Part shown: piece after piece, positions 21,699-38,084 of the stretch
Position numbering within the stretch: the stretch's first letter is position 1
Layout: every line of letters starts with the position of its first letter
Assembly (NCBI GenBank): GCA_024742275.1
Contig: JANSYS010000017.1
Span: 1-64,000, forward strand
Direction of reading: 5' to 3'
Origin: Alphaproteobacteria bacterium
Lineage (GTDB): Bacteria; Pseudomonadota; Alphaproteobacteria; Thalassobaculales; Thalassobaculaceae
DNA: 64,000 nt
Notes under the pieces: model-generated
Seen by the model: only the letters and a program-made list of their open reading frames with translations
Database searches by the model: none
Told to the model about the DNA's origin: nothing
Position numbers and translations under genes: made by a program

Positions 21699-21881
21699 TC
21701 TCAGCCCCTTCTCGAGACAACGGTGACACGGAGTCTGGCCAAGCCCTCAAGGCGGTTCAAGGTTCAAAATTCCTTTATGGTTGAGGATCTGTGAAAAAAA
21801 GCTCTCTGTGCGTGCCATGAGCCGCTCGGTTCGCTAGAGTTCACGGTACCCTGATGATTGTCGATGACGAGGCGGTCTCGA

Positions 21882-23201
21882 ATGTTGCGCTCCGCCAATC
21901 TCGCCGCCGCCATTCTTGTCGCCGCCATGCTGGCGGGCGTGCTGTCTGTCGTGCCGGCAATGGCGTTGGACGCGGACAAGGTCGGTCTGTCCTCCGGGGC
22001 TCTCTCCTCCGGGGCTCTGTCCACCGGGGCTCCGCCTGCCGGGGGCTCGGCGGCGCCGGTGACGAGCCCGGCCGAACCGTCGCCGCAGAGGTACGGCGCG
22101 CGGGAGAACCACGACGCGATCGCCGTCGTTATCGGCAACCGCGCCTACGGGCATGGTCTGCCGGAGGTTCGCTATGCCGAAAACGATGCGGAGGCGGTCC
22201 GGCGGTTCCTCGTAGACCGGCTTGGCTACCGGCCTGGCAACGTCATCGATCTGCGCAATGCCTCGCAGGCGGAGATGTTGTCTGTCTTCGGCAGTGACGC
22301 GGATCATCGTGGCAAGCTCTGGGCATGGATACGGCCCGGGCTGTCCGATCTGTTCGTGTATTACTCCGGTCACGGCGTGCCGGGATTGAGGGATCGGCGC
22401 GGCTACCTGCTACCGGTCGATGCCGATCCGGCGACACCGGAGATCAATGGCTATTCCCTCGATCTGATGCTGTCCAATCTGGCCAAACTGAATGCCCGGT
22501 CGACGATCGTGATGATCGACGCCTGCTTCTCCGGAAGTTCCGCCGCCGGATGGCTGATTCGGTCGGCCTCGCCCGTCTACGTGCGGGCCGCCGCTCCGCC
22601 GGATCCTGGCGGCATGACCATCGTGACGGCCGCCAGGGGTGATCAGGTGGCGAGTTGGGACGATGCCGCGCGGCTCGGCCTGTTCACCCGCCACATGCTG
22701 GACGCGCTGGCCGGCGGTGCCGCCGATCGCGGCCGCGGCGGAAACGGCGACGGCGCCGTCTCCCTGTCGGAGTTGGAGGCCTATTTGGACGACGAGATGA
22801 CCTATGCCGCCCGGCGTCTGTTCCGCCGGGTTCAGCAGGCCAGCATCCTCGGTGATCCGGCGTCGGTTCTCGTTGAGCGGCTGCCAGCCGATACCGCTTC
22901 TCCGGCATGGCGGGAGCCGGCGGCGCCGGTTCCCGTGCCGCTTCGAGGTGGAGTCGCGACCCCGGCGATCGCGGTATCCGGAATCCGGAGACCCATGACC
23001 GTCGACGAGGCCGAGGCCTTTCTGGCGGCGAACTGGGAAGAAGTGCGGACCGTCATCTTCTCGTTCTACGCGCGGGAAGGATCGGTGTGGGATCTCCGCG
23101 GCAATCCTCCCATCGTCGAGTTCGCGGAGCGCATGCGATCCATCGACCGGCACGAGGTCGTGCAGGTCGCCGAAAATCGCGTCGACCTGGCGATCTCTTA
23201 A
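21882..23201 (+). CDS. Exported caspase-like (peptidase C14) protein
   Basis: The 439-residue protein begins with a signal peptide (residues 1 to about 29, AMALD cleavage region). A linker with repeated LSSGA/LSTGA units precedes a caspase-fold domain (about 75-270). The catalytic His lies in YYSGHG (His164) and the Cys in DACFSG (Cys215). NGDGAVSLSELEAYL (about 287-302) has the spacing of an EF-hand-like calcium loop, which is common in bacterial C14 proteins. A 60-residue C-terminal domain follows. The protein is thus probably periplasmic and possibly calcium-dependent. The ATG at 21882 is chosen for GAGGCGG upstream; ATG 21864 and TTG 21858 are alternatives. Confidence 0.85.
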   Translation: MLRSANLAAAILVAAMLAGVLSVVPAMALDADKVGLSSGALSSGALSTGAPPAGGSAAPVTSPAEPSPQRYGARENHDAIAVVIGNRAYGHGLPEVRYAENDAEAVRRFLVDRLGYRPGNVIDLRNASQAEMLSVFGSDADHRGKLWAWIRPGLSDLFVYYSGHGVPGLRDRRGYLLPVDADPATPEINGYSLDLMLSNLAKLNARSTIVMIDACFSGSSAAGWLIRSASPVYVRAAAPPDPGGMTIVTAARGDQVASWDDAARLGLFTRHMLDALAGGAADRGRGGNGDGAVSLSELEAYLDDEMTYAARRLFRRVQQASILGDPASVLVERLPADTASPAWREPAAPVPVPLRGGVATPAIAVSGIRRPMTVDEAEAFLAANWEEVRTVIFSFYAREGSVWDLRGNPPIVEFAERMRSIDRHEVVQVAENRVDLAIS

Positions 23202-23293: not shown

Positions 23294-24931
23294 ATGAGCG
23301 GTCGGTCGGCTCCCCTGCGCCGCTTGGCGCTGCTGACGGTTGTTCTCCTTTGGGCTTCAGCGCAGTCCGCGCGGGCGTCGGATGGCGTCACTCGGGCGCT
23401 GATTGAACCGGCGGCCCGCATCTGGGCTTCCATGCCAAGCGGAAGCCGGATTGCCGTCGCGCCGATAGACCCGGATACGAGCGGCTTGCCGGACGCGTTA
23501 CTGATCGAGGTGGAACGGTCCTTCGCCGCCGCCCTGCTCGCCACCGCGCCAACCGGAAGCGCGGTGTCCAGCCGTCGCGATCTCCCGATGGCTTGGGAGG
23601 AAGCGGAGAGTTTTACGCAGGGCGCCGCCGCCGGATTGCTCGCCCAGGCGGCGGTCGACGCCGTGGCCGTGGCGTCGGTTGCCGAGCAGGCGGACGGTGT
23701 GACGCTCTCAGCCGTTCTGTTGGCCGTGCGTGGAGAGGCCGTCGGCGATGTCCTCGCGACGATGGCGCCAACCGCCCTGGCGCTGGAGATGGGGGCGCTG
23801 GGTCTGGCGGGTGCCGAGGCCGGCGCCCGGCGATTGGGCGTGGCGTTGGCTGAAGGATTGCGCGCCTCCGTCGACCCGAGCGCGGCTTTCACGGTGCGCG
23901 TGCATACGGCCGGTGATCGCGGCGCTGCCGGGCAATGGTTCGCCGCTCTCGTCGCCGAGCATATCTCCCGACGACTTGCGCAGGCGCCGCCCTATATGCC
24001 GCATCCGTTGCGAAGCCTGGGAAGCGTGCCTGCCCCGCGGACGGTCGTGCTCGAGCTCGCGCTGTGGGATCACGGAGATCGGTTGGACATCCACGGAAGG
24101 GCGTCCATGGGCGAGGTGGCGGCCCGGTCGTCGGTCCGTATCGCGGTCCGGTCGATACCGCGCAGTTTCCTGCCGTTGACGCGCTACGGTGGGCGGGTGG
24201 GCCTTGGACTGCAGCAGGCGGTCGGGTCCTTCGAGCCGCAGGCGCCGACGGATCGGCGGGAGGTTCTGTTCGCCGCGCGTGTCCTCGCTCGCGCGGCCCT
24301 GATCGACCGGACGCTCGGGTCCGGTGGAGGCGACCGGAGGGGCCGGGGCCACGCCGATCTGACGGCGGCGATGGGGCGTCTCGCCAAGGGTATCCCGCAT
24401 GAGGAGGTTTGGCACGACGAGTGGGCGTCCGCGCCTGCTGCAGCCCAGACTCTTCGTGCGCGGATGTCGCCGATCGGCGGCGGTGAGGCGCCGATACTGG
24501 AGGCGTCGATCGAGCGTGCGGTCTACCGAGCCGGTGAGAGAATGGGCGTGCGGGTTCTGGTGCGGGGGGGCCGGGCTCATGTAGCCGTCTTCGTCTGGCA
24601 GGCGGACGATACGGTGGTCCGTATTGCGCCCTGGCAGGAGGCCGCCCTCAGGGTCGAAGCGGCGCAGCGCACCGATCTTTCCGGACCTGGAGATCCGGAG
24701 ATTGCGCCCGCTCCCTTGCCCGGGTCGCAGGAAACCGTCGAGGCTGTCATCGTGGTCGCAAGCGCGCTGCCGTTCTCCGCCGATGCGCTGGCGCCGCTCG
24801 CTGGTGAGACCGCGTCGGACAGCCTTGCCGGAGCAGTCGAGATGAGCGCGTTCTTGGACATGCTTGCCGGGTTGGATCTGACGCGCACCAGCCTTGCCGT
24901 CCTGCCCTACCGGGTTCGTGCCACGGACTAG
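23294..24931 (+). CDS. Exported protein with CsgG/FlgO-like region and DUF4384-like end
   Basis: The 545-residue protein has a signal peptide (about 1-29, ending SARAS). The first part, with SRIAVAPIDPDTSGLPDALLIEVERSF, resembles the GxxIAVxPF and helix pattern of CsgG/FlgO-type proteins. The C-terminal part, with ERAVYRAGERMGVRVLVRGG and AVFVWQADDTVVRIAP, resembles DUF4384, a domain often found with caspase-like or CHAT proteins. It follows the caspase-like gene by 92 bp. An overlapping longer frame from 22907 is only a shadow of the caspase gene. No catalytic motif is visible. Role unknown; periplasmic or outer-membrane partner of the neighbouring proteins is inferred. Confidence 0.7.
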   Translation: MSGRSAPLRRLALLTVVLLWASAQSARASDGVTRALIEPAARIWASMPSGSRIAVAPIDPDTSGLPDALLIEVERSFAAALLATAPTGSAVSSRRDLPMAWEEAESFTQGAAAGLLAQAAVDAVAVASVAEQADGVTLSAVLLAVRGEAVGDVLATMAPTALALEMGALGLAGAEAGARRLGVALAEGLRASVDPSAAFTVRVHTAGDRGAAGQWFAALVAEHISRRLAQAPPYMPHPLRSLGSVPAPRTVVLELALWDHGDRLDIHGRASMGEVAARSSVRIAVRSIPRSFLPLTRYGGRVGLGLQQAVGSFEPQAPTDRREVLFAARVLARAALIDRTLGSGGGDRRGRGHADLTAAMGRLAKGIPHEEVWHDEWASAPAAAQTLRARMSPIGGGEAPILEASIERAVYRAGERMGVRVLVRGGRAHVAVFVWQADDTVVRIAPWQEAALRVEAAQRTDLSGPGDPEIAPAPLPGSQETVEAVIVVASALPFSADALAPLAGETASDSLAGAVEMSAFLDMLAGLDLTRTSLAVLPYRVRATD

Positions 24932-24987: not shown

Positions 24988-25056
24988 CGGGATGGTGTGC
25001 CAGAAACTCCATCTGCATCTGCCATGACCGGGGCGACAGCGGACGGGAGGATGGCA

Positions 25057-26043
25057 ATGGCGACGATGGGGACGACGATGGCCGCTCGGACCGCGCTGCT
25101 GCTGATCGCGGGCGTCATGCTGCTCTCCTGCGCCTCGGCGCCGACTCAATCGCGGGCTCAGGAAACGGGCGCGCCCGCCTCCGGTCTGGGGTTCGAGACG
25201 GGACCCTTGAGCGTCATGGTGCTGGGAGAGGACGCGCATCCGAGCCTTCTGCCACGCGACGATCCAGCCTTCCGACGGGTCGTCTCGGAACTCCAGGCCG
25301 CGATGGATCGTCGGGGTTTTCGGGTTGTGGACGCGGCCGCGGTCGCCGCCGAGCTCGGTTGGAAATCCGGCGGAACCGGCGACAGGGTGGATGCGCTGGA
25401 GGCGGCCAGGCTGGCCAATGCCAGCGGTAGCGCGGCGACGCGCGTCCAGGCCGTCGTTCTCTTCCGGATTGAGAGCATCTATCGCGACCTGCGCTACACC
25501 ACCAGGATCGACCTGACCCTTTCGGGCGAGATTTATGACGTCCGCAGCAATCGTTTCCTGGGTGCGTTCGACCTGCCAACCGAGACCGTCAGCACGGCCG
25601 GGAGCTGCGTGACGTCGACCTGCGCGTCGAATGCGGTGGGCGGCCGGGCCCGCGATCTTGCTGTCGATCTTGGGGCGGTTCTGGCTCGCCGACTCGCCTA
25701 CCTTGCGCCGCCTGCCGGCACCGTCACCGGCGGCAAGCGGCTTCACGAGTCGGTCTATACGGTAACGTTCCGCCAGCTCTCCACCGAGGACGCCCTGTCG
25801 ATCATCGGAGTCATGACCGACGGCTTTCCGGGTTATCGCAGCCATGACCTGATGCGCGGCGGCGTGGCGCTGCGTCGGTACCAGTACGTAAGCACGGCGA
25901 GCGTGGCCGAGATCGAGCGCTGGCTCACACTCCTGCTGGTGGATATGGATCTCGATCCACAGCGCCAAGTCTTTCTCGGTGTTCGCGGCTCGGACATTTG
26001 GATCGAACGGTTGACCCCGGGTGGAGCGCGTAGCGTGGATTGA
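25057..26043 (+). CDS. Lipoprotein with CsgG/FlgO-like fold
   Basis: About 328 residues. A lipobox LLSCAS follows a hydrophobic signal. The mature part starts LSVMVLGEDAHPSLLPRDD and continues with an alternating strand-helix pattern (ELQAAMDRRGFRVVDAAAVAAELG, then TRIDLTLSGEIYDVRSNRFLG), as seen in LPP20/FlgO/CsgG-type lipoproteins. A cysteine pair, SCVTSTC, may form a disulphide. The C-terminal 80 residues are a separate small domain (VTFRQLSTEDALSIIGVM). GGGAGG lies six bases before the ATG at 25057; ATG 25051 and 25024 are alternatives. Probably an outer-membrane-anchored component. Confidence 0.65.
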   Translation: MATMGTTMAARTALLLIAGVMLLSCASAPTQSRAQETGAPASGLGFETGPLSVMVLGEDAHPSLLPRDDPAFRRVVSELQAAMDRRGFRVVDAAAVAAELGWKSGGTGDRVDALEAARLANASGSAATRVQAVVLFRIESIYRDLRYTTRIDLTLSGEIYDVRSNRFLGAFDLPTETVSTAGSCVTSTCASNAVGGRARDLAVDLGAVLARRLAYLAPPAGTVTGGKRLHESVYTVTFRQLSTEDALSIIGVMTDGFPGYRSHDLMRGGVALRRYQYVSTASVAEIERWLTLLLVDMDLDPQRQVFLGVRGSDIWIERLTPGGARSVD

Positions 26044-26234: not shown

Positions 26235-26657
26235 ATGGACGACACCGCCGCCAGTGGCGCCTTGAGCGAGATCGCGCTCGCCTTGGCGATGGCGTTTTTC
26301 TGCCTCCTGGTCTTGACCCTTGTCTCCGTCGGCGATCCGGCCGGAGGAGGAGCCCTGTCGGCGGCGCCCCGCATCGACACTGCGGAACGGGGCGGGACGG
26401 ACCGCCCGGTCGCCGACAACGAGACCCTGATCATCTTCCACAACGGCCGCTTCCTAGACCACGACGCGGTCGCGCTGGATCCGGCGACGCTGCCTGACGG
26501 CCCGCTCGTGCTCGCGGTAGACCCCGCTCTGTCGGTTGACGCGGTTCTCGCGGCGCGGGCCGTGACGAATGAGGCGTCCGTCACCGTCACGACCCTGGAT
26601 TCGGCCTGGGTCCGCCGGCTAGCCGGTGGGAGCTCTGGCGCCGGAGAGGCACGATGA
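26235..26657 (+). CDS. Single-pass membrane protein, possibly ExbD-like
   Basis: The 140-residue protein has one transmembrane helix at about residues 13-31 after a short N-terminus and then a small domain (about 60-130). The topology and size recall ExbD/TolR, and VLAVDPALSVDAVLAARAV resembles the periplasmic ExbD segment, but the conserved membrane aspartate of ExbD is absent. AAGGAGG precedes the ATG at ideal distance. The stop overlaps the lytic transglycosylase start (ATGA), so the two are coupled. ExbD similarity is only an impression. Confidence 0.6.
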   Translation: MDDTAASGALSEIALALAMAFFCLLVLTLVSVGDPAGGGALSAAPRIDTAERGGTDRPVADNETLIIFHNGRFLDHDAVALDPATLPDGPLVLAVDPALSVDAVLAARAVTNEASVTVTTLDSAWVRRLAGGSSGAGEAR

Positions 26658-27418
26658 CGCGCTTGTTCCTTGCCATAGCCGCCGCCGTTCTGGCGTTCGC
26701 CGACATTCCGGCGGCCGGGGCTCGACCGTCACCCGCCGACCTGCCCACCCGCGAGGAGGTTCGGCGTATGGTGGTCCAGGAAGCGATGCGCAGCGAACGT
26801 GTGCCGCCGTCGTTGGCCCTGGCCGTCGCCGAGGCGGAGTCCGACTTCGTCGCCGACGCGCTGAGTCCGGTCGGCGCCCGTGGGGTGATGCAGATCATGC
26901 CGGCCACCGCCCGGGGTGAGTTCGGCGTCGATGCCGATGAACTCTGGAATCCCCGCCTCAACATTCAGTTGGGAGTCGCCTTCCTCGATCAACTCATCGA
27001 GCGCTACGACGGACGCTGGGATCTCGCCCTGTCCCACTACAATGGCGGTTCGCGGGTCGGCCGCGGGAAGGACGCTCGGGTGATTCCCGCGACCCGCTCG
27101 TACGTGGACAAGGTTCTGTCGGCAGAGCGGCGCTACGCACGCGACGAGACGGCGCGGCAGCTGGCCGAAGCGGTCGATACGGCACGGGCCCGACCCACGG
27201 GGCGTCTTGCGATGCCGGACCGGGACGCGCGCCATGCCGCCGAGCGGACGGATCGTGGCGACCGTTACCTTGCTCTCGCGGGCACGGCTCTCGACATCGC
27301 CCAGGACCGCTATCGAGCGAGGCTTGCCGGCCCGGAGCGACGGGTGGGCTCACCCCGTCTTCTTGAGCGGATTGCCGAGCGCAAGGCACGGTTCCGCAAG
27401 CTCCTGGCCGGCGGGTGA
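26654..27418 (+). CDS. Lytic transglycosylase (SLT family)
   Basis: The 254-residue protein has a signal peptide (about 1-23, PAAGARP) and a GH23 SLT domain. AVAEAESDFVADALSPVG carries the catalytic Glu in the ES motif, GVMQIMPATA and LNIQLGVAFLDQLIERYDG are standard blocks, and YNGG completes the site. It would cleave peptidoglycan strands and so open the wall for an envelope complex. The Arg-rich C-terminal region (about 155-254) is unusual for the family and may bind a partner. It is coupled by a 4-base overlap to the preceding single-pass protein. Confidence 0.9.
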   Translation: MTRLFLAIAAAVLAFADIPAAGARPSPADLPTREEVRRMVVQEAMRSERVPPSLALAVAEAESDFVADALSPVGARGVMQIMPATARGEFGVDADELWNPRLNIQLGVAFLDQLIERYDGRWDLALSHYNGGSRVGRGKDARVIPATRSYVDKVLSAERRYARDETARQLAEAVDTARARPTGRLAMPDRDARHAAERTDRGDRYLALAGTALDIAQDRYRARLAGPERRVGSPRLLERIAERKARFRKLLAGG

Positions 27419-27511: not shown

Positions 27512-29152
27512 ATGGACGGCATCTCGACGGAACGCGCGCTGCTCGCCGGTGCGATCAGTCCGGAGCTGCAAGCGGCATTCAGGACAGTCGCTGAGGCCGA
27601 TCTAGGGGGCGGTCCGAAATACGCCGCGTCCGTCATGCGCGCGCTTTCCAGAACGGTTGCCGCCCGCGCCTATGGTAAGCCGATGCTGGAGCTTTGCCAT
27701 CTGTTGCGGATCGCCGATGCGGTGGGAGGGCGGCATGGATGGCCGGCGCTCGTGTTCGGCGTGCAGGTGGCGCGCGCGGCCGCTTTCCGAGCGCAGGTGC
27801 AGGATGGCGCCCGCCGTCGTCCCGCCTTCGCCGGCGACTTTCGCCTCGAAGCCCACGGCGTGACCGTGGTCTATCCCGACGGCGCGTTCACCGTGAACTA
27901 CGGCCGCATGGGTTTTCTGGCGGCGCTTCTCGAGCTGATGGTGACGGCCGTCGGCTACCGTGCCGTCGATGGGGAGATCCGTGCCTGGCTCGAGGCACCG
28001 TTCCAGTCGGCGCGCGCGGCCTCCCATGCGAACGCCTTGTCGCGGTTGTTTTACGATCATTTGAAGGACCACCTCTCCACCGCGCAGAGTCTTCGGGTCT
28101 TCGCCCGCATGATCGCGTTCCTGGAGCAGGACCGCGGCCGGGGGTTCACCGTCGACGATTTCGACGACCGGGCGGTTCTCGACTACTGGCATCGGTCCGT
28201 GACGGCAGGGGATGAGGAGTCTCTGGAACTCAGGGGCTTCCGGGTGGTCACCGAGCGGGTCGGGCAGCTGCGCACGGCGCTTCAGGCGGCGTTCGAACGA
28301 CATGCCGTCGACACGGCTTTGCCGGTCGGTCCGGACCGGGCGGCAGGCGAGATTGATCCCGGTGCGTTGCTCTCGATCCTGGAGGTGCAGGACGGCGAAG
28401 CCGACGAACTCCGGTCGCTCGAAGTGCCACCGACTGCCAGTGTGAAATTCCTGACCGGCCGTGAGGTTGCGGAACTCGAGCTAATCGCGCGGCTGGGCTC
28501 CCATGCCGGTGCGCTGGCGCTCTCGGTTCTGCGCTCCGCGACCTTCGGCGCGCTTCAGGGGCGTTTGAGCCAGGCCCTGCGCCGTCGTGCTTCCGCCGGG
28601 GAGTTTGCCGCCCTGGTCGATCTCGTCGGTTGTGAGACCTACGGACAACGGCTTGCTCACTGGCGGGCCCTGGAAGAGCGGTTGGAACGTATGGCGCTGG
28701 CGGCATTGGCCGTGCTGGTCGAGGCCGACCGGGCCGAGGCGGCGATGGAGGTGCTCGCCAGGCTGCCGACCGCGGATCTCAGCGGCCTGCGTGCGCGGCT
28801 CCCGAGCGACGCGGAGGGCGGCAATGTGGTTGCCCTTCGGCCGGGTGGAACCGCCGGCATGGTGGCGGCGCTGGCCGAGGCCAAGGTGGTTGGCCCGGAA
28901 GTGTCGACCTTGATCTTGGAGGCACGGCGGGCGCTGAGGGGACTCGCTCGGTCGGGATTCGCTCCGGAAGACAGGCGCCGGGCCGGCGTCGTCGATGGAA
29001 TGGCGGTCGGCGCTCCTCTTGTCCGACGACTGCTGGTGCGGTTGGACAACGTGCGCATCATGGCCGAATCCAGACTCGACCCTGACAGTTTCGAGCGCGA
29101 TGCAGTGAGGTTCCGCGAAGGGTTCCGCGCGTTGTACGGAGAGCTCGCATGA
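27512..29152 (+). CDS. Large cytoplasmic protein of unknown function
   Basis: The 546-residue protein has no signal peptide or membrane segment and is rich in Ala, Arg, Leu and Glu, suggesting a mainly helical fold. I recognise no catalytic motif. Visible landmarks are VVYPDGAFTVNYGRMGFLAALLELM (about 129-153), KFLTGREVAELELIARLG (about 310-328) and a C-terminal LDNVRIMAESRLDPDSF. It opens the second half of the cluster after the AT-rich region and is coupled (ATGA) to the next gene. It may be a cytoplasmic scaffold or regulator. Confidence 0.7.
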   Translation: MDGISTERALLAGAISPELQAAFRTVAEADLGGGPKYAASVMRALSRTVAARAYGKPMLELCHLLRIADAVGGRHGWPALVFGVQVARAAAFRAQVQDGARRRPAFAGDFRLEAHGVTVVYPDGAFTVNYGRMGFLAALLELMVTAVGYRAVDGEIRAWLEAPFQSARAASHANALSRLFYDHLKDHLSTAQSLRVFARMIAFLEQDRGRGFTVDDFDDRAVLDYWHRSVTAGDEESLELRGFRVVTERVGQLRTALQAAFERHAVDTALPVGPDRAAGEIDPGALLSILEVQDGEADELRSLEVPPTASVKFLTGREVAELELIARLGSHAGALALSVLRSATFGALQGRLSQALRRRASAGEFAALVDLVGCETYGQRLAHWRALEERLERMALAALAVLVEADRAEAAMEVLARLPTADLSGLRARLPSDAEGGNVVALRPGGTAGMVAALAEAKVVGPEVSTLILEARRALRGLARSGFAPEDRRRAGVVDGMAVGAPLVRRLLVRLDNVRIMAESRLDPDSFERDAVRFREGFRALYGELA

Positions 29153-29712
29153 CCGGCCGTTGGCAGGATCTCGACATGGCGGGCCGACGCACGGCCGGTA
29201 CGGTCTTCGCCGCTCTCGACGTCGCGCGGGAGTTGGCGGACGCGGGTGGCGCCGTGTCCGACGATGCGGTCGCCGGCGCCCGAGAATGGGGCCGTCCCTC
29301 CATATCGGCGGTATGGGCGGCTTTGGTCGGCGGACAAAGCCTGCCGTCCGATGTCGTTGCGACAGCCGATATCGAGGCGCTTCTGGCGACGGCGGCGTTG
29401 GCCGTGATCCCGCGTTCGGCGGCGGCCGCCTCCCCGGACGATGGGTCAGCTCGGGAGATCGAGCGGCGGGTCGACGGCGTGCGTGTCCGGATCGTGCCGT
29501 CTCGCGCCGGACCGGAACACAGGTTTCTGACGGTTACCTTCCAGGGTCCTGGCTCGACCGCGACTCGTTTGTACGCGGTGGTCGATGGACGGACACCGGT
29601 CGACGTGGCCCTACCGCCGCCGGTGTCCGGATCGGTGCAGTTGCTTGTCGACACCACGGATCCGATTCTCGCGGCCTTGACGGATCCGGACTCCCGCCTG
29701 TACCTCGTGTGA
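29149..29712 (+). CDS. Hypothetical cytoplasmic protein
   Basis: The 187-residue protein begins MTGRWQDLDMAGRRTAGTVF and has no signal or membrane helix. The second half (about 100-187) is beta-rich: RVDGVRVRIVPSRAGPEHRFLTVTF and DVALPPPVSGSVQLLVDTTD. I do not recognise the family. Its start overlaps the stop of the 546-residue gene by 4 bases, so the two products are probably made together and may interact. Confidence 0.6.
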   Translation: MTGRWQDLDMAGRRTAGTVFAALDVARELADAGGAVSDDAVAGAREWGRPSISAVWAALVGGQSLPSDVVATADIEALLATAALAVIPRSAAAASPDDGSAREIERRVDGVRVRIVPSRAGPEHRFLTVTFQGPGSTATRLYAVVDGRTPVDVALPPPVSGSVQLLVDTTDPILAALTDPDSRLYLV

Positions 29713-29750
29713 GGGTTGTGCAGATCGGGTTGGTCTATGGGTAAGGTTGC

Positions 29751-30986
29751 ATGAATGGACGCCTGCGCGTGGTCGTCGCGACCACCGACGGCCCTAGCAC
29801 CGTCCGCCGGATCACGGCGGAGGATCCCGGTCTGCGGTCGGTGATCTGCCTCGCCGGCACGTCGACCGCTCTTCCGATCTCCAACGCCTACGACGCCTTC
29901 GTGCGTCGACCGACCGGCGTGATCGAGCGCGATGTCGGGCACCCTGTCTTCCGGCTTGATCTCGACCAACCGATCGATGCCGGGGCGAGCTGGCAACTCG
30001 GGGTTTACTTGGCCCATCGGCTGAAGGCGGCCGATCGACTGGCGGAGGATGCCGAGGCTGCCGACGGCGTCCTTTGGGCGACCGGCACGGTGGATGCCGA
30101 TCTCAATGTCGGGCCGGTCGACCGGGTCGCCGAGAAAGCGCGGCGCTGTCGCGACGTCTTCGTGTCCGACGTCCCGGTCCTGGCGGTTTGCGCCCGCGAG
30201 AACGCGACGGAGATGCCTGACGATGGCAAGTGCCTGGCGATCGAGCGGGTCGGGGAGGCGCTGGACATTCTGGGCCTCGCCGGTCCACCGGCCCCGGTGC
30301 GCGGCGGGTGGCGGAGGCCGAAGGCGTGGGGCACCCTCGTCATGCTGCTGATTGCGGTGCTCGGGTTCGGCGTCTGGAACTTCTGGAATCAACCGTCCGA
30401 CCCCGGCGCGATGCGGGCCGCTGGCGCTTTGGAGGCTGGTCGGTCCACGCATGCGCCCGCTTCCGAAGTGGGAGCGCCGTTCGATCCTGGCTCGGTGATT
30501 TTGGACGTATTGGATGCGCGGGCCCGCAGCGGTTCCTGCGGCGCAGCAACCCTCTCCGCGCCGCGCTCCAGCCCGGCCGGTGCCGAGGGCGCCGATCTCC
30601 CCGCTGCTGACGCGACGGGCGTCTGCGCCGTGGTTTTTCGGGTGACGAATACGGGGGACCGGTCTGCCTATATGTGGCTATACGGCGCGGTCCAGGGCGC
30701 TGTTCGCGAGTACGCGTCGCGACGCCGCCACGTCGAGGTTGCCACCGGCACCTTGGTGCCGGGCGAGCAGGGGGCCGTCCGGGTCCAGCCACCCGATTGG
30801 GTTCGGCGCGAGGTGGTGGTGCGGGGGCTTCTCGTGCTGACCGGCGAGCCCGACCCGCAAGTGACGCGGGCGCTGTCGGGACTCGATCTCATGTCGGTCA
30901 GCGATTTGGAAAAGACGGTGGCCGGGTTGCGGGCCAACCGAATCCATGTCCGTGAGATCGTCCACCGGGTCGCGCCGGCCCGCTGA
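29751..30986 (+). CDS. Membrane-anchored protein with Lon-protease-like domain
   Basis: The 411-residue protein has three parts. Residues 1 to about 165 align by eye with the Lon (S16) proteolytic domain: QPIDAGASWQLGVYLAHRL stands where Lon has TPKDGPSAGIAMCTAL, and ATGTVDADLNVGPVDRVAEK where Lon has MTGEITLRGQVLPIGGLKEK. This places Ser80 and Lys129 at the positions of the Ser-Lys dyad, 49 residues apart (43 in E. coli Lon). A single membrane helix follows (about 192-211), then an extracytoplasmic domain (about 230-411). There is no AAA+ domain. It is either a membrane-tethered protease or a binding domain derived from one. Confidence 0.7.
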   Translation: MNGRLRVVVATTDGPSTVRRITAEDPGLRSVICLAGTSTALPISNAYDAFVRRPTGVIERDVGHPVFRLDLDQPIDAGASWQLGVYLAHRLKAADRLAEDAEAADGVLWATGTVDADLNVGPVDRVAEKARRCRDVFVSDVPVLAVCARENATEMPDDGKCLAIERVGEALDILGLAGPPAPVRGGWRRPKAWGTLVMLLIAVLGFGVWNFWNQPSDPGAMRAAGALEAGRSTHAPASEVGAPFDPGSVILDVLDARARSGSCGAATLSAPRSSPAGAEGADLPAADATGVCAVVFRVTNTGDRSAYMWLYGAVQGAVREYASRRRHVEVATGTLVPGEQGAVRVQPPDWVRREVVVRGLLVLTGEPDPQVTRALSGLDLMSVSDLEKTVAGLRANRIHVREIVHRVAPAR

Positions 30987-31046
30987 AAAACGTCCCTGTG
31001 GATTCCATGGCTCCGGCAAGGATCAATTCCGCCGGAGGATCACGCC

Positions 31047-31601
31047 ATGCATCGACCGCCCCCCCGCCCTGGCCCTGCATCGCGCCTGTCCGTCCTGACG
31101 CTGACCCTGACCGTATCTCTATCAGCCTGCCTGACGTCGCCGCCGCCGCCACCTGCCGAGGGCATCGGCTATCGGGCGGCACGGTTCGCCGAAATCGAGG
31201 CCATGCGCGCCTATCGTGCTTGTCGCGACGAAGGGCTGTCCCTCGACCGCCAGGCCCGGGCGGGCGGCGATGCAGGACGGTATCTTGCGGTTGCCCGGAT
31301 TCTCGAGGGCTGCGAGGCCGATCTCGGCACGGCCGCCGCTTCCCTCAACGTCGAAGAGCGCATGCGCGCGTATGGCGTTTCCGTTCTGGCCCGGTTGAAG
31401 GGCGGCGACGTGGCGGGCGCGCGGAACGCGCTCGACCGGTTCGGCGCGGCGTTCGACGGCAGGGACCTGTTCTTCGACGACGGAGCCTCGTTCATCGATA
31501 GCGTTGCCGCCGTGCTGGACGGCGGGCCGGTACAGCCAGGGGCTAGCGTGCCGCGGCCGTTGGCCGAAGAACTGGCCCGGATCGGGCGATGGGCGCGGTG
31601 A
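31047..31601 (+). CDS. Putative lipoprotein
   Basis: The 184-residue protein has an N-terminal signal with lipobox LSAC at about residues 25-28, followed by a Pro-rich stretch. The mature domain is helical and contains paired cysteines in AYRACRDEG and ILEGCEAD, which may form a disulphide. RxLDRFGAAFDGRDLF-type sequence suggests TPR- or Sel1-like helical hairpins but no repeat is clear. GGAGG precedes the ATG. Its stop overlaps the next gene (TGATG). Confidence 0.65.
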   Translation: MHRPPPRPGPASRLSVLTLTLTVSLSACLTSPPPPPAEGIGYRAARFAEIEAMRAYRACRDEGLSLDRQARAGGDAGRYLAVARILEGCEADLGTAAASLNVEERMRAYGVSVLARLKGGDVAGARNALDRFGAAFDGRDLFFDDGASFIDSVAAVLDGGPVQPGASVPRPLAEELARIGRWAR

Positions 31602-32497
31602 TGGCGGCGCGGCTGATCGCGGCGGCCGCCGGTCTGGCAGCCGGGCTCGTCCTGCCGGCGGCGGCAGACGCATGGGCTCAAGACATTTCGAACTGGGGCG
31701 GGGGCGCAGCGGAGTGGGCGCCGGTCGCGAGCGAGCATCTCGTCCGGTTGCCTGCCGGGTACATCGAGAAGGCGATCGAACGGGATTTCCAGGACTCCGC
31801 CCTGGCCGACGCGCTGCGGAGTAAGGCCGAGGCGATCGAGGGAACCGCAGCGTCGCTTGCCGAGCTTCAGGAGGCCGCGGACAGCGCGGGGGAATCGGAC
31901 GGCGGCGAAGCCCGCCACCGGTTCCTTGTTGCCAAGCAGGAATATGTGGCTCTCATGGGCGCTCGCCAGGATTTAGAGCGTCGGCGGGTGGAGACGCGGA
32001 TCGGTCTCTTCCGTCGCTTGCTTGACCGGATCGACCGCTCCGCCGATCCCGGTGACGATCCGGCACGCGCCGAACTGGAGGAGAACCGGAAGACGGCGAT
32101 GCAGCGTTTCGCCGGGAGCGCGGACGCGGTCGACATGAAACTTTTTGCCTCGGCCACAGCCGATGACAGCCGGTATGCCCGTGAGTACCGCAGGCGCGCC
32201 GCCGCGATCGCAGACTTGGTCCGGGCGATAGACACTCACCCGATGAACGCCGCCCCGGAGCTCGATGGCCGCGCCATGGGCAAGGCCGAGTATCTCAACC
32301 ACCTCCTGGCAGCCGCCGAGACGGAGATCGCGTTGCTCGACCAGAAGGACCTGGTGCTCGCCTACATGGCGAAGCTGGTTGCGCTGGACGCCATGGCCCT
32401 CGCCGACGAGATCGATCAGCGCCACGGCTCCGGCCCGGTTGCGGCCGGGATGCGTGATGTGACCGCCGCCGTCGATTTCTTCACCGCGCCCGACTGA
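31601..32497 (+). CDS. Exported helical protein of unknown function
   Basis: About 298 residues, with a signal peptide (roughly 1-26, ADAWAQD cleavage region). The rest is strongly helical and charged, with coiled-coil-like stretches (RSKAEAIEGTAASLAELQEAAD; RQDLERRRVETRIGLFRRLLDRID). It probably lies in the periplasm and could be a rod or spacer element. The ATG at 31601 is chosen because it overlaps the preceding TGA, although an ATG at 31589 is also in frame. No family recognised. Confidence 0.65.
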   Translation: MAARLIAAAAGLAAGLVLPAAADAWAQDISNWGGGAAEWAPVASEHLVRLPAGYIEKAIERDFQDSALADALRSKAEAIEGTAASLAELQEAADSAGESDGGEARHRFLVAKQEYVALMGARQDLERRRVETRIGLFRRLLDRIDRSADPGDDPARAELEENRKTAMQRFAGSADAVDMKLFASATADDSRYAREYRRRAAAIADLVRAIDTHPMNAAPELDGRAMGKAEYLNHLLAAAETEIALLDQKDLVLAYMAKLVALDAMALADEIDQRHGSGPVAAGMRDVTAAVDFFTAPD

Positions 32498-32513
32498 ACC
32501 ATAGGAGGATGCC

Positions 32514-32945
32514 ATGCCGCGTGCCCGTCGCTCAAACACGATGACGCCGGTTCGGGGCGGTTGCGCCGCGACAGCCCTCGCCGTCGGGTTGCTCGCCGCA
32601 ACGGTTTCGGTTGCGCCGGCGGCCGCCGGCGCGCTTGAGACTTTGGAGCGCGAGCGCGCCCGTCTGATCGAGATGCTGCTGGATGCCGATCGGGCGGCGC
32701 CCGGACGGCTGGCGGAGGCGGAATCGGTCCGGCGGCGGCTCATCGACCTGGAGAGGATCGCTTTGCGCGATCCGAAGACCGCGACCGACACCAGGCCGAT
32801 CGCCCGTCGCGCCTTCGCGGACTACGATCTCACGTTTGTCGCCCATGCCTCTATCGAGCGGGACATGACGGTGCTCGACCTCTGGCTCGATCGCATCGGC
32901 GTGTCGACGGCCCGGGTCATGGCGGCGCGCGTGGGGCGCCGCTGA
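32514..32945 (+). CDS. Small exported helical protein
   Basis: The 143-residue protein has a signal peptide (about 1-38, APAAAGA) and a short mature helical part beginning LETLERERARLIEMLLDADRA. Two conserved-looking features are RRAFADYDLTFVAHA and the C-terminal LDLWLDRIGVS. AGGAGG stands at good distance before the ATG. The stop codon overlaps the start of the channel-like gene. Function unknown; periplasmic accessory of the adjacent channel-like protein is inferred. Confidence 0.65.
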   Translation: MPRARRSNTMTPVRGGCAATALAVGLLAATVSVAPAAAGALETLERERARLIEMLLDADRAAPGRLAEAESVRRRLIDLERIALRDPKTATDTRPIARRAFADYDLTFVAHASIERDMTVLDLWLDRIGVSTARVMAARVGRR

Positions 32946-33484
32946 TGCGCCGGCCATCGCTTGCCCGATGGGCGCTCCGGTCGTTCGACGGTCGACTGCT
33001 GGACGACGTGGCTCGGGCTCTCGCCGGGCTCCTCGCCCTGGCCAGCCTCGGCCTGGCGACCGGGGTCTGGCTGACCGGCGAAACCGTCGCCGATCTGGTG
33101 GCCCGCGGCGAACGGGTGTTGGGCTCGGCGTTCCTTGTCGGGCTCTCGCTCTTGCTGCTGCTGGCGCTGCTCGCGGCGGTGCGTCTTTGGCGCGATCCGG
33201 AGGACCGTCCCTGGAGAGCCACCGGTCTACAGGCCGCGTCCGGCATCGCCACCCTGGCGTTGACCTTCACCCTGCTCGGAATTGGACTCGGCATTGCCAG
33301 CCTGTCCGACTCGCGCATCGCGCCCGAAACCGTGAACGCGATCATCGCCGCCTTGACGGAGCGTTTCGCGCTTGCCTTCAGCACGACCGTGGTCGGGCTT
33401 CCTCTCGCGGCTTTGATGCGGGCGGTACTGATTGTCCTGGCGGAGCGGAAACGCCCGGCCGGTGCACCGGGAGTTGAGGGATGA
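32945..33484 (+). CDS. MotA/TolQ/ExbB-like membrane protein
   Basis: The 179-residue protein has four membrane helices (about 20-43, 58-81, 97-120, 140-166). The third, TLALTFTLLGIGLGI, and the fourth, FALAFSTTVVGLPLAALMRA, resemble the two conserved helices of the MotA/TolQ/ExbB proton-channel family (GLLGTVLGL and TTxxGLxxAI patterns). The helices are separated by ETVNAIIAALTER, close to the family's short periplasmic loop with a helix before the last segment. It lacks the large cytoplasmic loop of TolQ/ExbB, so it is a minimal version. It is coupled by overlap to the next gene. Confidence 0.7.
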   Translation: MRRPSLARWALRSFDGRLLDDVARALAGLLALASLGLATGVWLTGETVADLVARGERVLGSAFLVGLSLLLLLALLAAVRLWRDPEDRPWRATGLQAASGIATLALTFTLLGIGLGIASLSDSRIAPETVNAIIAALTERFALAFSTTVVGLPLAALMRAVLIVLAERKRPAGAPGVEG

Positions 33485-33939
33485 AGTTCCTGGTCTTCAA
33501 TCTCGTGGTCGGCGCGGCACTGGCCTACTTGATCGTTGCGGACGGCCGTCGGTCGAGCCGGGATACGGAGAGCGACGGGATTCGCGCGGCTCGAACGATG
33601 GCGGGTCCGTCCGCTTCCGTCGGCCTCCCGTCTGCGCCGCATGACGGGGCTCGTCTGGTGGCGACGCCCGGCCCGTCCGCTCAGGTTCCGCCGATACCGT
33701 CGGTGGGTGGCGGCCTTGGCGGATCGCATGCAACGTCGGTGACCGACTTGGACGCGCCTGTGGTCAATCGGCCGCTCTCCACGCCTGCCGCCCTTGTGGA
33801 CCGGCGGACGGGCTCGGTTGGCGTCGACGGGGAGATGACGACGCGGGGGCTCTCGACGCTCTCCGCCGCCGAACGAGGACGTCAGCTGCACGACATTGCA
33901 CGCGAGATGGAGGACCGATTCCTGAGCGGGGTCCGATGA
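33481..33939 (+). CDS. Single-pass membrane protein with disordered tail
   Basis: The 152-residue protein starts MKFLVFNLVVGAALAYLIVADGRR, one membrane helix with a short N-terminal end. A low-complexity Ser/Pro/Gly-rich region follows (about 35-115) and a short C-terminal helix (SAAERGRQLHDIAREMEDRFL). Its place right after a MotA/ExbB-like gene is where ExbD, TolR or MotB usually sits, but it lacks their conserved Asp and any OmpA-like domain. Start and stop are coupled with both neighbours. Confidence 0.6.
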   Translation: MKFLVFNLVVGAALAYLIVADGRRSSRDTESDGIRAARTMAGPSASVGLPSAPHDGARLVATPGPSAQVPPIPSVGGGLGGSHATSVTDLDAPVVNRPLSTPAALVDRRTGSVGVDGEMTTRGLSTLSAAERGRQLHDIAREMEDRFLSGVR

Positions 33940-34794
33940 ATGGAGCATAGAGGACCGAAACGTCGGATCGCGCAGGGCCGTTTGGCGACCGCCATCCCAT
34001 CGGGTCTGGGGTTAGGTCTCCTCGCTCTGGCCGCGGTCCCGTCGTTGGATGGCGACCTTCCATCGGGCCTGGCTCTCGAACCGCTGCCGCGTCGTGCGCC
34101 ACCGCTCGCCCCAACATTCACCCCACCCCCCGATCTATCGACCGCGCCAAGCCTAGCTCTGGCCCGGATCCGATTGCCGCCTCCCCCATCGCCGGGTGGC
34201 GACCGACCACTGCTTCCCGACAGGTTCGCCGAGCCCTTGGCCGCGGCCACCGCGCCCGAGGCGTCATCGATTTCCGATGCCTCCCAGAGCGTCGACCGGC
34301 TGACGGGGGCCGTGATGCTCGCGCGGATCGAGGCTGGGACCGGCCCGGCTTTGGAACTCCATTGGCCTCGGGGCAGCATTGAGCGCCAGCGGATCGCTGG
34401 CCATCTCACCCGCTGCGCCGGTCTTGCCGTCGCCGTCATGGCCCGAGGTCGTCTTTGGCGACTTGAGGATCCGTCGGGGCGCGCCTGGATGCCGGATCCG
34501 GCACGCCTTTCGACCCTTGCCCGCAGAGCCGAGGGGGTAGCGCCTTCCAGCGTCGATCGTATCCGTCGGCATCACGGAGTGGCGAAGGGCGTACCGATCG
34601 CGTTTGTGGCCCGCGGTTTCGACATCCGGTTGTTGGACGGTCTCGCCCGCCTCATGCCGAGCGGGGAGCGGATCGGGCGCGTGGAAGCCGGCTACGGCGT
34701 TCGGGACGGCTGGCTGGTTCTCTCGGCTATCGCGGTCGACGGCAGGCCCATCGCCGGTGAGGTACGGTTGGCGAGGATCGGCAGGTGCGGCTGA
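33940..34794 (+). CDS. Proline-rich single-pass membrane protein
   Basis: The 284-residue protein has an N-terminal membrane helix (about 18-36) after a basic stretch, then a long proline-rich segment (about 45-100, with repeated PPP) and a globular C-terminal part (about 110-284). This layout recalls TonB or TolA, in which an inner-membrane anchor and Pro-rich linker reach across the periplasm, but the C-terminal domain is not a recognisable TonB domain. The start codon follows directly on the preceding TGA, and the stop overlaps the next gene by 10 bases. Confidence 0.6.
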   Translation: MEHRGPKRRIAQGRLATAIPSGLGLGLLALAAVPSLDGDLPSGLALEPLPRRAPPLAPTFTPPPDLSTAPSLALARIRLPPPPSPGGDRPLLPDRFAEPLAAATAPEASSISDASQSVDRLTGAVMLARIEAGTGPALELHWPRGSIERQRIAGHLTRCAGLAVAVMARGRLWRLEDPSGRAWMPDPARLSTLARRAEGVAPSSVDRIRRHHGVAKGVPIAFVARGFDIRLLDGLARLMPSGERIGRVEAGYGVRDGWLVLSAIAVDGRPIAGEVRLARIGRCG

Positions 34795-35435
34795 TCCTCG
34801 TCGGGCCCTTCGTCTGCCTTCTGGGCGCCTGCATGGCGGCGACGGGCGGGACGCCGCCCGAGCATCGGGTCGAGGCGGCATTCTGGACGGCGCCGCCGGA
34901 GTGCGTGGTGGTCCTCCCGGCGATGGTCAGTGGTCCGCTGGATGTCCGGGCGGCCGAACGAGCCTTTTTCCGCCATCTGGTCGGACGCATCGCGGTCGTG
35001 GTCGGCCCAGATCGGCGGGACGCCGAAACCCGCGCGCTTGCGCTCGATCTTCGCCATCCGGGCGACCGTAGGCGGTACGCAGATCTGACGGGGTGCCGGC
35101 ACGGCGTGGATCTCACCGTTTCGGGTGATCGTGCCTACGCGGTGATCTGGACGGAGGGGTCGATTGCGCTCGATGCCGCGCTGATCGATCTTGCGACCGG
35201 GTCGACATTGTGGCGGTCTCGCCACCGAGCGACCCGTGGCGATGGCGGATTGCCGACGTCGCCGGTGGGCCTCGCCATGGCACTGGGACGTGCCGGGCGT
35301 CTTGCATCCGACGGGGAGTTGATGCCGTCGGTGCTTGATGACGCGCTGAGAAGGCTGGTGGCAACGCTTCCCGACACCAGGGTTCATGCCGTCTCCAGGA
35401 ATTCCAATGTCAGGCCGTTGTCATCCCGGAAGTAG
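34785..35435 (+). CDS. Putative lipoprotein, DUF799-like
   Basis: The 216-residue protein has a signal ending in lipobox LLGAC (about residues 12-16). The mature part contains CVVVLPAMVSG, ERAFFRHLVGRI and DAALIDLATGSTLWRSRHRA, which resemble the GNA1162/DUF799-type lipoproteins of the CsgG-like fold; this is a family impression, not proof. It is the last gene of the plus-strand cluster. Its 3' end overlaps the convergent VOC gene by 52 bases. Confidence 0.65.
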   Translation: MRLILVGPFVCLLGACMAATGGTPPEHRVEAAFWTAPPECVVVLPAMVSGPLDVRAAERAFFRHLVGRIAVVVGPDRRDAETRALALDLRHPGDRRRYADLTGCRHGVDLTVSGDRAYAVIWTEGSIALDAALIDLATGSTLWRSRHRATRGDGGLPTSPVGLAMALGRAGRLASDGELMPSVLDDALRRLVATLPDTRVHAVSRNSNVRPLSSRK

Positions 35436-35833
35436 GCGACCCTGCGCCCGGCATTGGGTCCCTGGTCGATCGCATATACCTCTCCCAGAAGCGATAGGCC
35501 GTGAGCTTCCGCCAGGACGAGAAGCGCGTCCATATCGTCCACATCCAGGGCGAGGTGGCTGAAGCCTGCATCGCAGGGACGCGGGGCGGCGTGGCCGCGG
35601 TTGTCCGGTGCGTGATACTCGATCAGCTCCACCCGGTGCGACGGTCCCTGGACGAAGGCGATGGTGACGTCGCCGCCGGCGACTCCGGTGATCCGCTCGA
35701 TCGCGGTCCGGTCGCGCGGCGCGCGGGACAGAAGTTCGAACCCCAGTCCGTCGACGAAGAGAGCAAGCGCCCGGTCGAGGCTCTTCACCGTAAAACTGGT
35801 GTGGTTGGTACCCGTCACCCGGACCGTTTTCAT
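35384..35833 (-). CDS. VOC-superfamily (glyoxalase-like) protein
   Basis: The 149-residue protein has two beta-alpha-beta-beta-beta modules of the vicinal-oxygen-chelate fold. NHTSFTVKSLDRALALFVDGLGFE carries the first metal His, VELIEYHAPDNRG and FSHLALDVDDMDALL the next ligands, and GLTLEFLE the last Glu. Substrate unknown: glyoxalase I, dioxygenase or methylmalonyl-CoA epimerase-like activity are all possible. It is divergent from a LysR gene 103 bp away, a typical regulator-target pair. Confidence 0.85.
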   Translation of the reverse strand: MKTVRVTGTNHTSFTVKSLDRALALFVDGLGFELLSRAPRDRTAIERITGVAGGDVTIAFVQGPSHRVELIEYHAPDNRGHAAPRPCDAGFSHLALDVDDMDALLVLAEAHGLSLLGEVYAIDQGPNAGRRVAYFRDDNGLTLEFLETA

Positions 35834-35936
35834 CTTTGCCTCCCATACCCTTGATTCTGCAAAGCCGGAGGCGGATCATAAAGTTCAGCTTTGCGAATAT
35901 CGAGTGAGAGACATGGCCGGCGGGTCCTCGGGAAAC

Positions 35937-36833: not shown

Positions 36834-36937
36834 AAGTCTTTCGGCGAAAGGCTTGGTACCATTAAGAGTTGATCGCTTCCGCATCGGCCGGTTCAATTGC
36901 CGTCTTGCCTAGCCGATCCAAGCCGACAGGAGGACCT

Positions 36938-37834: not shown

Positions 37835-38084
37835 CAGCGCCGCCGACAGCCGGGGCGAACCGATCGCCCGGTCGCTCGACGTGCGTGGCCTGAAATGCCC
37901 GCTGCCCGTCCTGAAGGCCCGGAAGGCGATCGGCGATATCGAGATCGGCGCTTTGCTTGAGGTGCTTGTTACCGATCCGGCGGCGACGCTGGATTTCCGC
38001 CACTACGCCCGCCAGTCCGGTCACGAACTAGTAGCGGCGGAAGAGGGTGACGTTCTGCGCTTCATTCTGCGGCGAACCATCTGA
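37824..38084 (+). CDS. TusA/SirA-like sulfur-carrier protein
   Basis: The 86-residue protein has the TusA signature LDVRGLKCPLPVLKARKAI, with the CP cysteine that accepts persulfide sulfur, followed by GALLEVLVTDPAATLDFRHYARQSGHEL. TusA-fold proteins deliver sulfur for tRNA thiolation or other uses. Translation is coupled: the start lies inside the last codons of the DUF1194 gene. No other sulfur-relay gene is nearby. Confidence 0.88.
   Translation: MTADSAADSRGEPIARSLDVRGLKCPLPVLKARKAIGDIEIGALLEVLVTDPAATLDFRHYARQSGHELVAAEEGDVLRFILRRTI

What the first reader, a model, noticed from the sequence alone, without database searches (positions are those of the whole stretch)
32945..34794. Minimal MotA/ExbB-like channel protein followed by two single-pass proteins, one with a TonB-like proline linker
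The 179-residue protein keeps the two conserved helices of the MotA/TolQ/ExbB family but lacks the large cytoplasmic loop. The next two genes encode single-pass proteins in the slots normally filled by ExbD/TolR and TonB/TolA, yet lack their conserved Asp and C-terminal domains. This suggests a divergent motor of the ExbBD/TolQR type.
Basis: partly seen in the sequence, partly recalled or inferred. Interest (0 to 1): 0.65.

Follow-up and report, generated by a model that had tools for sequence, protein, structure and literature searches.

The report
Divergent Tol-like envelope motor genes
A bacterium carries a conserved set of genes that looks like a stripped-down relative of the tiny ion-powered motors bacteria use to pull on their outer membrane, and the motor's probable partner subunit, missed at first sight, sits a few genes upstream.

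Summary
The three genes are real. L (32945-33484) is a membrane protein with four long helices. Its AlphaFold2 model (no templates, pLDDT 90) has TolQ, ExbB or ZorA as its ten best structural alignments (Z 11.5-10.0; next, an unrelated bundle, 9.4). A ZorA profile matches 20 of 29 homologues at E up to 1 (best 1.6e-5). Pfam MotA_ExbB and profile-profile tests were not significant.

M and N are single-pass proteins. The likely ExbD/TolR-type subunit is D (26235-26657), 6.3 kb upstream in the same array: its model's Foldseek ranks 1-6 are all ExbD/TolR. A glutamate at its helix start is kept in 61 of 61 distinct homologues that span it; MotB, ExbD, TolR and ZorB have aspartate there.

Of 385 genomes, 20 have L, 19 have D, 17 both; in one the two lie 294 kb apart. 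Genes I, J, K, N, usually with D, a lytic transglycosylase (E) and F-G-H, recur with L in Alpha- and Gammaproteobacteria.

Best reading: a divergent TolQR/ExbBD-type motor in a trans-envelope system I found undescribed. Ion flow, stoichiometry and purpose are inferred.

The parts
32945..33484 (+). L: 179-aa membrane protein with four long helices, MotA/TolQ/ExbB-type ring subunit with minimal cytoplasmic part
   Evidence: overlaps the K stop by 1 base and the M start by 4
26235..26657 (+). D: 140-aa single-pass protein, ExbD/TolR-like periplasmic domain, invariant Glu12 at the start of the helix (proposed ion-binding axle subunit)
33481..33939 (+). M: 152-aa single-pass protein, conserved N-terminal helix and C-terminal segment, variable middle
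33940..34794 (+). N: 284-aa single-pass protein, proline-rich linker and conserved C-terminal domain of unknown family (candidate TonB/TolA-like transducer)
34785..35435 (+). O: 216-aa lipoprotein by its N-terminus, weakly GNA1162-like (outer-membrane candidate)
   Evidence: E 1.7e-4, below the Pfam cut-off; E 0.14
32514..32945 (+). K: 143-aa protein with N-terminal hydrophobic segment (secreted?), core gene
31589..32497 (+). J: 302-aa protein with N-terminal hydrophobic segment (secreted?), core gene
31047..31601 (+). I: 184-aa lipoprotein candidate with invariant Cys28, core gene
26654..27418 (+). E: 254-aa SLT-family lytic transglycosylase
   Evidence: PF01464 E 2.2e-23; synteny
27512..29152 (+). 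F: 546-aa protein without hydrophobic segment (cytoplasmic?), family unknown
29149..29712 (+). G: 187-aa protein, family unknown
29751..30986 (+). H: 411-aa protein, Lon-protease-like part then one hydrophobic segment
   Evidence: (21 of 21 PDB matches at E up to 5 are Lon-type, best E 6.3e-4)
21864..23201 (+). A: caspase-like (C14) protein, accessory, in a minority of loci
   Evidence: PF00656 E 7.5e-16
23294..24931 (+). B: accessory protein, DUF4384-like by its relative in L025
   Evidence: window protein E 0.068 (not significant), L025 homologue E 7e-12
25024..26043 (+). C: protein with N-terminal hydrophobic segment, start uncertain; CsgG-like by my reading only (no Pfam match to CsgG)

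Best explanation
L and D are the two halves of an ion-driven inner-membrane motor related to TolQR, ExbBD and ZorAB. Several L subunits (five, by analogy) would ring two D helices. Glu12 of D would take up and release a proton against a ring of conserved threonines in L (Thr107, Thr109, Thr147), moving D relative to L. N, and perhaps M, would sit at the edge of the ring as TonB/TolA does and carry force through a proline-rich tether to the outer-membrane side, where lipoprotein candidates I and O and the probably secreted J and K would form the periplasmic and outer-membrane part. E would open the cell wall for the assembly. F, G and H would be a cytoplasmic or inner-membrane control module. 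Shown here: gene conservation, synteny, co-occurrence of L and D, invariant residues, predicted folds of L and D. Inferred: complex formation, stoichiometry, ion flow, force, and an envelope-maintenance or surface-remodelling role.
For: L model pLDDT 90.3, helices 17-44, 48-59, 61-83, 88-121, 130-167. VIA-align 2 ranks 1-10 all TolQ/ExbB/ZorA, Z 11.5-10.0; first unrelated row, a designed helical bundle, Z 9.4. Foldseek ranks 1-12 all TolQ, though E 0.18-0.53. ZorA models are the five commonest PADLOC families of L, in 20, 14, 12, 9 and 7 of 29 members at E up to 1, best 1.6e-5. D model pLDDT 80.9, one helix 3-31 and a periplasmic alpha-beta domain; Foldseek ranks 1-6 all ExbD/TolR (E 0.033-0.15, prob 0.82-0.98), next row unrelated at prob 0.08; VIA Z 6.3-5.1 against 4.1 for the next unrelated row. 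Glu in 61 of 61 distinct D proteins that span the helix start (60 by pattern; L171, the same contig as L020, read by eye; the other 2 of 63 do not span it). Thr107 in 102, Thr109 in 103, Thr147 in 100 of 103 L sequences. The axle Asp packs against a Ser/Thr ring in ZorAB and MotAB (PMC11890865, passages). L in 20, D in 19, both in 17 of 385 genomes, hypergeometric p 1e-24; in G411 the two genes lie about 294 kb apart on one contig. In L025 D lies between M and N, in L162 right after N, in L064 next to L. J, K and N are on L's strand in the same fetched locus in 81 of 81 distinct loci with at least 2.2 kb on both sides, I in 80.
Against: No significant Pfam match of L to MotA_ExbB or of any of 22 D members to ExbD. 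hhalign: L against 30 canonical relatives E 0.17 (reversed controls 0.37 and 0.60), and over the first two helices rather than the conserved pair; D against 29 ExbD E 0.035 (reversed 0.040 and 0.044); D against 18 MotB E 0.012 (reversed 0.0089 and 0.013): none significant. No PDB sequence matches the L profile at E 1; D's best PDB sequence match is quinolinate synthase, E 0.01. Z values for helical bundles below about 13 can be chance (note). TolQ's Thr in its LGT motif (recalled) appears to be Ile113 in L (by eye). D is absent from the fetched region in 16 of 66 distinct loci with ample flanks; only for some of these was the rest of the genome searched. The p value ignores shared ancestry. 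No complex was modelled. N has no match to TonB/TolA domains.
Confidence: 0.76

Rival explanations
1. A Zorya-like anti-phage system: L is the ZorA-like sensor motor, and F-G-H or the caspase A are the effector.
For: ZorA is the closest profile family of L; ZorA entries are in the structural list; a caspase-like protein is in the window's array.
Against: No ZorB, ZorC, ZorD or ZorE match among the 10 of 15 window proteins scanned against PADLOC (E, I, K, M, O not scanned); D has an ExbD/TolR-like domain rather than ZorB's OmpA-like one (recalled); most core products (I, J, K, O, E, N) look secreted or periplasmic; the caspase profile matches in 12 of 66 distinct loci only; in the window's family the locus sits between the same housekeeping neighbours in three genera, unlike a mobile island, though one other family member (L023) has it elsewhere. 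Flanks of other lineages were not scanned for defence genes.
Confidence: 0.1
2. L and D descend from motor subunits but no longer conduct ions; they are a passive inner-membrane scaffold for a trans-envelope complex.
For: L has hardly any cytoplasmic part; the usual Asp is replaced by Glu in every D that spans the site.
Against: The acid and the polar threonines are among the most conserved positions, which a scaffold would not need; Glu serves as the essential acid in GldL (PMC8986121, passages).
Confidence: 0.1
3. L is an unrelated four-helix membrane protein and D an unrelated small alpha-beta protein; the structural matches are chance.
For: Weak sequence statistics, poor Foldseek E-values for L and the known looseness of helical-bundle matches (note).
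Against: Two proteins of one array pick out the two partner families of the same kind of motor as top hits in a library of 350,542 chains; ZorA profiles agree for L; presence of L and D goes together.
Confidence: 0.05

Closest known systems
TolQ-TolR-TolA (Tol-Pal system)
   Same: Fold of L (best structural matches) and of D's periplasmic domain; neighbouring lipoprotein and secreted-protein candidates; a single-pass transducer candidate (N).
   Different: L has an extra N-terminal helix and no sizeable cytoplasmic domain; D has Glu in place of Asp; no TolB, Pal or TolA family matched any of the 15 window proteins; a lytic transglycosylase and F-G-H are added. The genome has 5 other genes matching MotA_ExbB and 3 matching ExbD elsewhere.
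ExbB-ExbD-TonB
   Same: Fold of L and D; TonB-like layout of N (helix, proline-rich linker, C-terminal domain).
   Different: N's C-terminal domain has no Pfam TonB match and the hydrophobic segment of the window's N has no His (TonB's motor-binding His: PMC12204202, passage); Glu instead of Asp in D; larger gene set.
ZorA-ZorB (Zorya defence)
   Same: Best profile matches of L are ZorA models.
   Different: No ZorA tail (L is 149-196 aa), no ZorB, ZorC, ZorD or ZorE match among 10 window proteins.
AglRQS-Glt gliding machinery with AgmT
   Same: A proton-driven envelope machine that a lytic transglycosylase connects to the cell wall (PMC11444678, start of abstract).
   Different: No Agl or Glt protein was searched for; kinship of the other parts untested.
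GldL-GldM (type IX secretion motor)
   Same: A conserved glutamate in a membrane helix is the essential acid (PMC8986121, passages).
   Different: There the Glu is on the ring subunit; here on the proposed axle subunit.
Motor-linked vWA transducers of Williams-Jones et al. 2025
   Same: Also newly proposed TolQ-like motor gene sets (PMC12204202, passages).
   Different: Those use vWA proteins and keep the Asp in the axle helix; no vWA domain was found by Pfam in the 15 window proteins of this array.

Membership tests
MotA/TolQ/ExbB superfamily (L) | Match to the Pfam family MotA_ExbB over its cut-off | tested here: not met
   none for the window protein, 2 of 29 members, best E 0.1; PF01618 search of the own genome found 5 other genes, not L
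MotA/TolQ/ExbB superfamily (L) | Fold of the ring subunit's helices | tested here: met
   structural ranks 1-10 all TolQ/ExbB/ZorA, Z 11.5-10.0; margin over the first unrelated bundle only 0.6 to 2.1
MotA/TolQ/ExbB superfamily (L) | Cytoplasmic domain of two or more helices (as in the classes of PMC12505986, passages) | tested here: not met
   residue 80-90 segment is 10-21 residues in 103 sequences; helices 61-83 and 88-121 joined by four residues
MotA/TolQ/ExbB superfamily (L) | Ser/Thr ring facing the axle acid | tested here: inconclusive
   Thr107, Thr109, Thr147 nearly invariant, but no complex was modelled
ExbD/TolR family (D) | One N-terminal helix plus ExbD/TolR periplasmic fold | tested here: met
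   (Z only 6.3-5.1, 58-82 residues aligned)
ExbD/TolR family (D) | Aspartate in the helix | tested here: not met
   Glu in 61 of 61 distinct sequences spanning the site
ExbD/TolR family (D) | Pfam ExbD match | tested here: not met
   0 of 22 members
TonB/TolA transducer (N) | N-terminal helix, proline-rich or extended linker, C-terminal domain | tested here: met
TonB/TolA transducer (N) | TonB/TolA C-terminal domain | tested here: inconclusive
   no Pfam match in 27 members, TonB only at E 2 and over the helix and linker; fold not predicted
Zorya defence system | ZorA tail, ZorB, and ZorC/D or ZorE present | tested here: not met
   L is 149-196 aa without a tail; no such match among 10 of 15 window proteins
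5:2 rotary motors | Five ring subunits around two axle helices, ion-driven | not testable with these tools
   only single chains could be predicted

The most novel reading that the evidence does not exclude
A previously unrecognised family of ion-driven envelope motors: a ring subunit reduced to little more than its membrane helices, an axle that uses glutamate where MotB, ExbD, TolR and ZorB use aspartate, and a dedicated set of about ten conserved partners (transglycosylase, lipoproteins, secreted proteins, a Lon-like inner-membrane protein) that form a trans-envelope machine in Alpha- and Gammaproteobacteria.
Probability: 0.6. Interest if true: 0.75.

Novelty: new variant of a known kind. 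Interest (0 to 1): 0.62.

Why it matters
Only a handful of systems (flagellar stators, Tol, Ton, gliding, type IX secretion, Zorya; PMC9389320 and PMC11890865 in passages, else recalled) are known to turn an ion gradient into motion through such ring-and-axle complexes. A further family, with a conserved Glu in place of the Asp of MotB, ExbD/TolR and ZorB and with hardly any cytoplasmic part, would test what the minimal motor is and give a new envelope machine to study in cultured bacteria. It also shows a family that surveys based on the Pfam models MotA_ExbB and ExbD would miss.

Tried and rejected
Profile-profile comparison (hhalign) of L with 30 canonical MotA/TolQ/ExbB sequences gave E 0.17 (reversed controls 0.37 and 0.60); of D with 29 ExbD E 0.035 (reversed 0.040 and 0.044) and with 18 MotB E 0.012 (reversed 0.0089 and 0.013). 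None is significant. The first run used wrongly oriented reading frames and is void. The same method barely linked ExbD with MotB (prob 19.5), so it was too insensitive to decide.

Single-sequence scan of genome contigs with L found nothing; the alignment-based scan found 137 relatives, of which 80 were kept. J has no match in 72,556 plasmid records, so a plasmid home is not supported.

M as the ExbD/TolR slot: rejected, because D has the fold and the acid. N as a proven TonB: not accepted, no domain match. Zorya membership: rejected for lack of the other Zorya parts; ZorA-like similarity kept as kinship.

Rows dropped or left out: of the members found, L062 (frame broken) was left out of A3; L022 (frame broken) out of A4; L022 and L062 out of A5. 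The alignments of F, G, H (11 rows each), I, J, K (18 each) and O (15) used only part of the members found (18, 17, 19, 26, 27, 28 and 26 hits, some of them fragments). G042 (E 4e-4) has no other operon gene in its 16 kb contig and was dropped as a likely false match. Three marginal matches (G555, G711, G738) were not examined. I took the 385 genomes to be the same draw (same size, same listed handles).

Papers: judged by the listed titles and abstract starts, searches showed no description of this cluster (61 listed 20 of 46 papers, 88 8 of 17, 96 6 of 12; one found none). PMC12505986, PMC12204202, PMC9389320, PMC8986121 and PMC11890865 were seen only as passages, PMC11444678 only as an abstract start in a listing. 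The library lacks most subscription journals and has no bioRxiv collection, so absence there is weak.
Full report
What is there. The window has about 63-70% G+C. One genome of the same genus (G002) has a contig of the same length as a Thalassobaculum litoreum contig in the named collection, with L at the same place (309,114 bases), so the window probably comes from a Thalassobaculum relative (inference). The finding's three genes are part of a same-strand array of about 15 genes from 21864 to 35435, here lettered A to O. K/L, L/M, N/O, D/E and F/G overlap and M/N touch, which suggests coupled translation.

Conservation. Matches to L were found in 14 of 98 close genomes, 20 of 385 genomes of the class and 10 of 398 genomes of the phylum (the own genome, 6 strong matches outside the class, 3 marginal ones). 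A pattern scan of one genome per species found 137 encoding contigs, the best 80 of which were kept. Their titles name Alphaproteobacteria (for example Thalassobaculum, Terasakiella, Sneathiella, SAR116) and Gammaproteobacteria (Glaciecola, Paraglaciecola, Colwellia, Pseudoalteromonas, Ningiella, Hahellaceae), many of them marine genera. I scanned 115 loci holding 102 distinct L genes. Of these, 81 had at least 2.2 kb on both sides: J, K and N were on L's strand in the fetched locus in 81 of 81, I in 80. The M profile was found in 62 of the 81, but a loose search for a short single-pass frame right after L found a candidate for 113 of 115 L genes (100 distinct). Among 66 distinct loci with at least 7 kb upstream and 4 kb downstream, D was found in 50, E in 49, F in 51, G in 50, H in 50, C in 37, O in 36, B in 22 and A in 12, on either strand. 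In several loci, among them SAR116 ones, the order is I-J-K-L-M-N followed by H-G-F-E-D-C on the other strand. So the system seems to consist of two blocks, (C-)D-E-F-G-H and I-J-K-L-M-N(-O), with A and B as extras. In the window's family the flanking housekeeping genes are shared in three genera (LysR, vWA and TusA neighbours in L015-L020 and L022; agmatinase in four of these), so the cluster is probably vertically inherited there; one further family member (L023) shows none of these flanks.

L. The alignments of 29 members and 103 sequences show the strongest conservation in two helices (residues 88-121 and 130-167). The model (pLDDT 90.3, no templates) has four long helices, a short one and almost no cytoplasmic part. 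Foldseek's top 12 PDB hits are all TolQ, with poor E-values (0.18-0.53). VIA-align 2 puts TolQ, ExbB and ZorA at ranks 1-10 (Z 11.5-10.0), with a designed helical bundle at 9.4 next. By sequence, ZorA models are the five commonest PADLOC matches (20 of 29 members for the first at E up to 1, best 1.6e-5), while Pfam's MotA_ExbB is not significant and hhalign did not decide. I conclude kinship to the superfamily by fold, beyond the reach of the Pfam model. The charge distribution (window L: Lys/Arg against Asp/Glu 6:3 at the N-terminus, 2:3, 3:3 and 1:2 in the loops, 3:2 at the C-terminus) agrees with both ends inside, as in MotA (recalled), but the signal is modest. No acid is invariant in L's helices; position 92, at the start of the third helix, is Glu in 72 of 103 sequences but Ala in the window.

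D, at 26235-26657, has one helix (3-31) and a periplasmic domain. Its six best PDB matches are all ExbD or TolR periplasmic domains, and VIA-align 2 agrees (Z 6.3, 6.0, 5.3, 5.3, 5.1 against 4.1 for the next unrelated row). Identity is 3-14%, and sequence searches of Pfam and the PDB do not find the relation. Glu12 is at the start of the hydrophobic part and is Glu in all 61 distinct D proteins that span it; the other 2 of 63 are truncated or frameshifted. MotB (PMC9389320, passages), ZorB (PMC11890865, passages) and ExbD/TolR (PMC12204202, passage) carry Asp there. GldM of type IX secretion is an exception; its ring partner GldL carries the essential Glu (PMC8986121, passages).

Link between L and D. 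D was searched in the class draw of 385 genomes: 19 have it, 20 have L, 17 have both. The five exceptions are draft assemblies of 230 to 440 contigs (G158, G221 with D only; G230, G339, G383 with L only). In G411, listed as one contig, L and D lie about 294 kb apart and are both kept. In L025, L064 and L162 D is found between M and N, next to L, or next to N. The hypergeometric p of 1e-24 ignores shared ancestry and is only a guide.

M and N. M keeps an N-terminal helix and a C-terminal segment around a variable middle. N has a helix, a proline-rich linker and a conserved domain that matches no TonB/TolA family in Pfam and nothing convincing by sequence in the PDB. A TonB/TolA-like role is by layout only.

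Other parts. E is a clear SLT transglycosylase. H matches only Lon-type proteases among 21 PDB sequences. I and O look like lipoproteins by their N-termini; O is weakly GNA1162-like. F and G are of unknown family.

Mechanism. The anatomy fits an ion-driven motor that pulls on or moves an outer-membrane-side assembly, with a cell-wall-cutting enzyme to let it through; Myxococcus offers a precedent for a proton-driven machine joined to the wall by a transglycosylase (PMC11444678, abstract start). Shown: conservation, co-occurrence, folds by prediction, invariant acid and threonines. Inferred: assembly, ions, force, purpose.

Verdict. Not ordinary, not an artefact. I class it as a new variant of a known kind: a divergent TolQR/ExbBD/ZorAB-type motor within a conserved gene cluster for which my literature searches (judged by listings and passages) showed no description.

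Noticed in passing
window 29751-30986 (H): Part of H resembles the proteolytic domain of Lon (21 of 21 PDB sequence matches, best E 6.3e-4) and is followed by one hydrophobic segment; by eye and recall the catalytic Ser may be kept and the Lys lost.
   Followed up: partly
window 26235-26657 (D), helix residues 8-28: The D profile weakly matches the helix at residues 48-68 of mitochondrial ATP synthase subunit c (E 3.9-4.6), which by recall carries the proton-binding Glu of the rotor ring; not significant, perhaps convergence.
   Followed up: no
G000 contig C34:132796-133571: A tandem pair of ExbD-family genes in the same genome; in several such loci, L124 of this contig among them, one copy reads PLINVV, with Asn where the axle Asp is expected.
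   Followed up: no
window 27430-27490: A strikingly AT-rich stretch just upstream of F; possibly a promoter of an F-G-H unit.
   Followed up: no
window 19935-21074 and 35384-39899: Neighbours (agmatinase-like, glyoxalase-like, LysR, vWA, TusA, IlvD; names by eye) are shared at this locus in relatives of three genera.
   Followed up: partly
L023 8122-10187 and L026 5493-7807: In two relatives a response regulator and histidine kinase pair (by eye) lies near the D end of the cluster.
   Followed up: no
L025 3872-4633: An OmpA-like protein (by eye) is encoded inside the rearranged cluster of this relative, next to the H homologue.
   Followed up: no
L016 14286-14774 (M): The variable middle of M holds a tandem GEPLR repeat in one relative, suggesting that linker length can change freely.
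   Followed up: no
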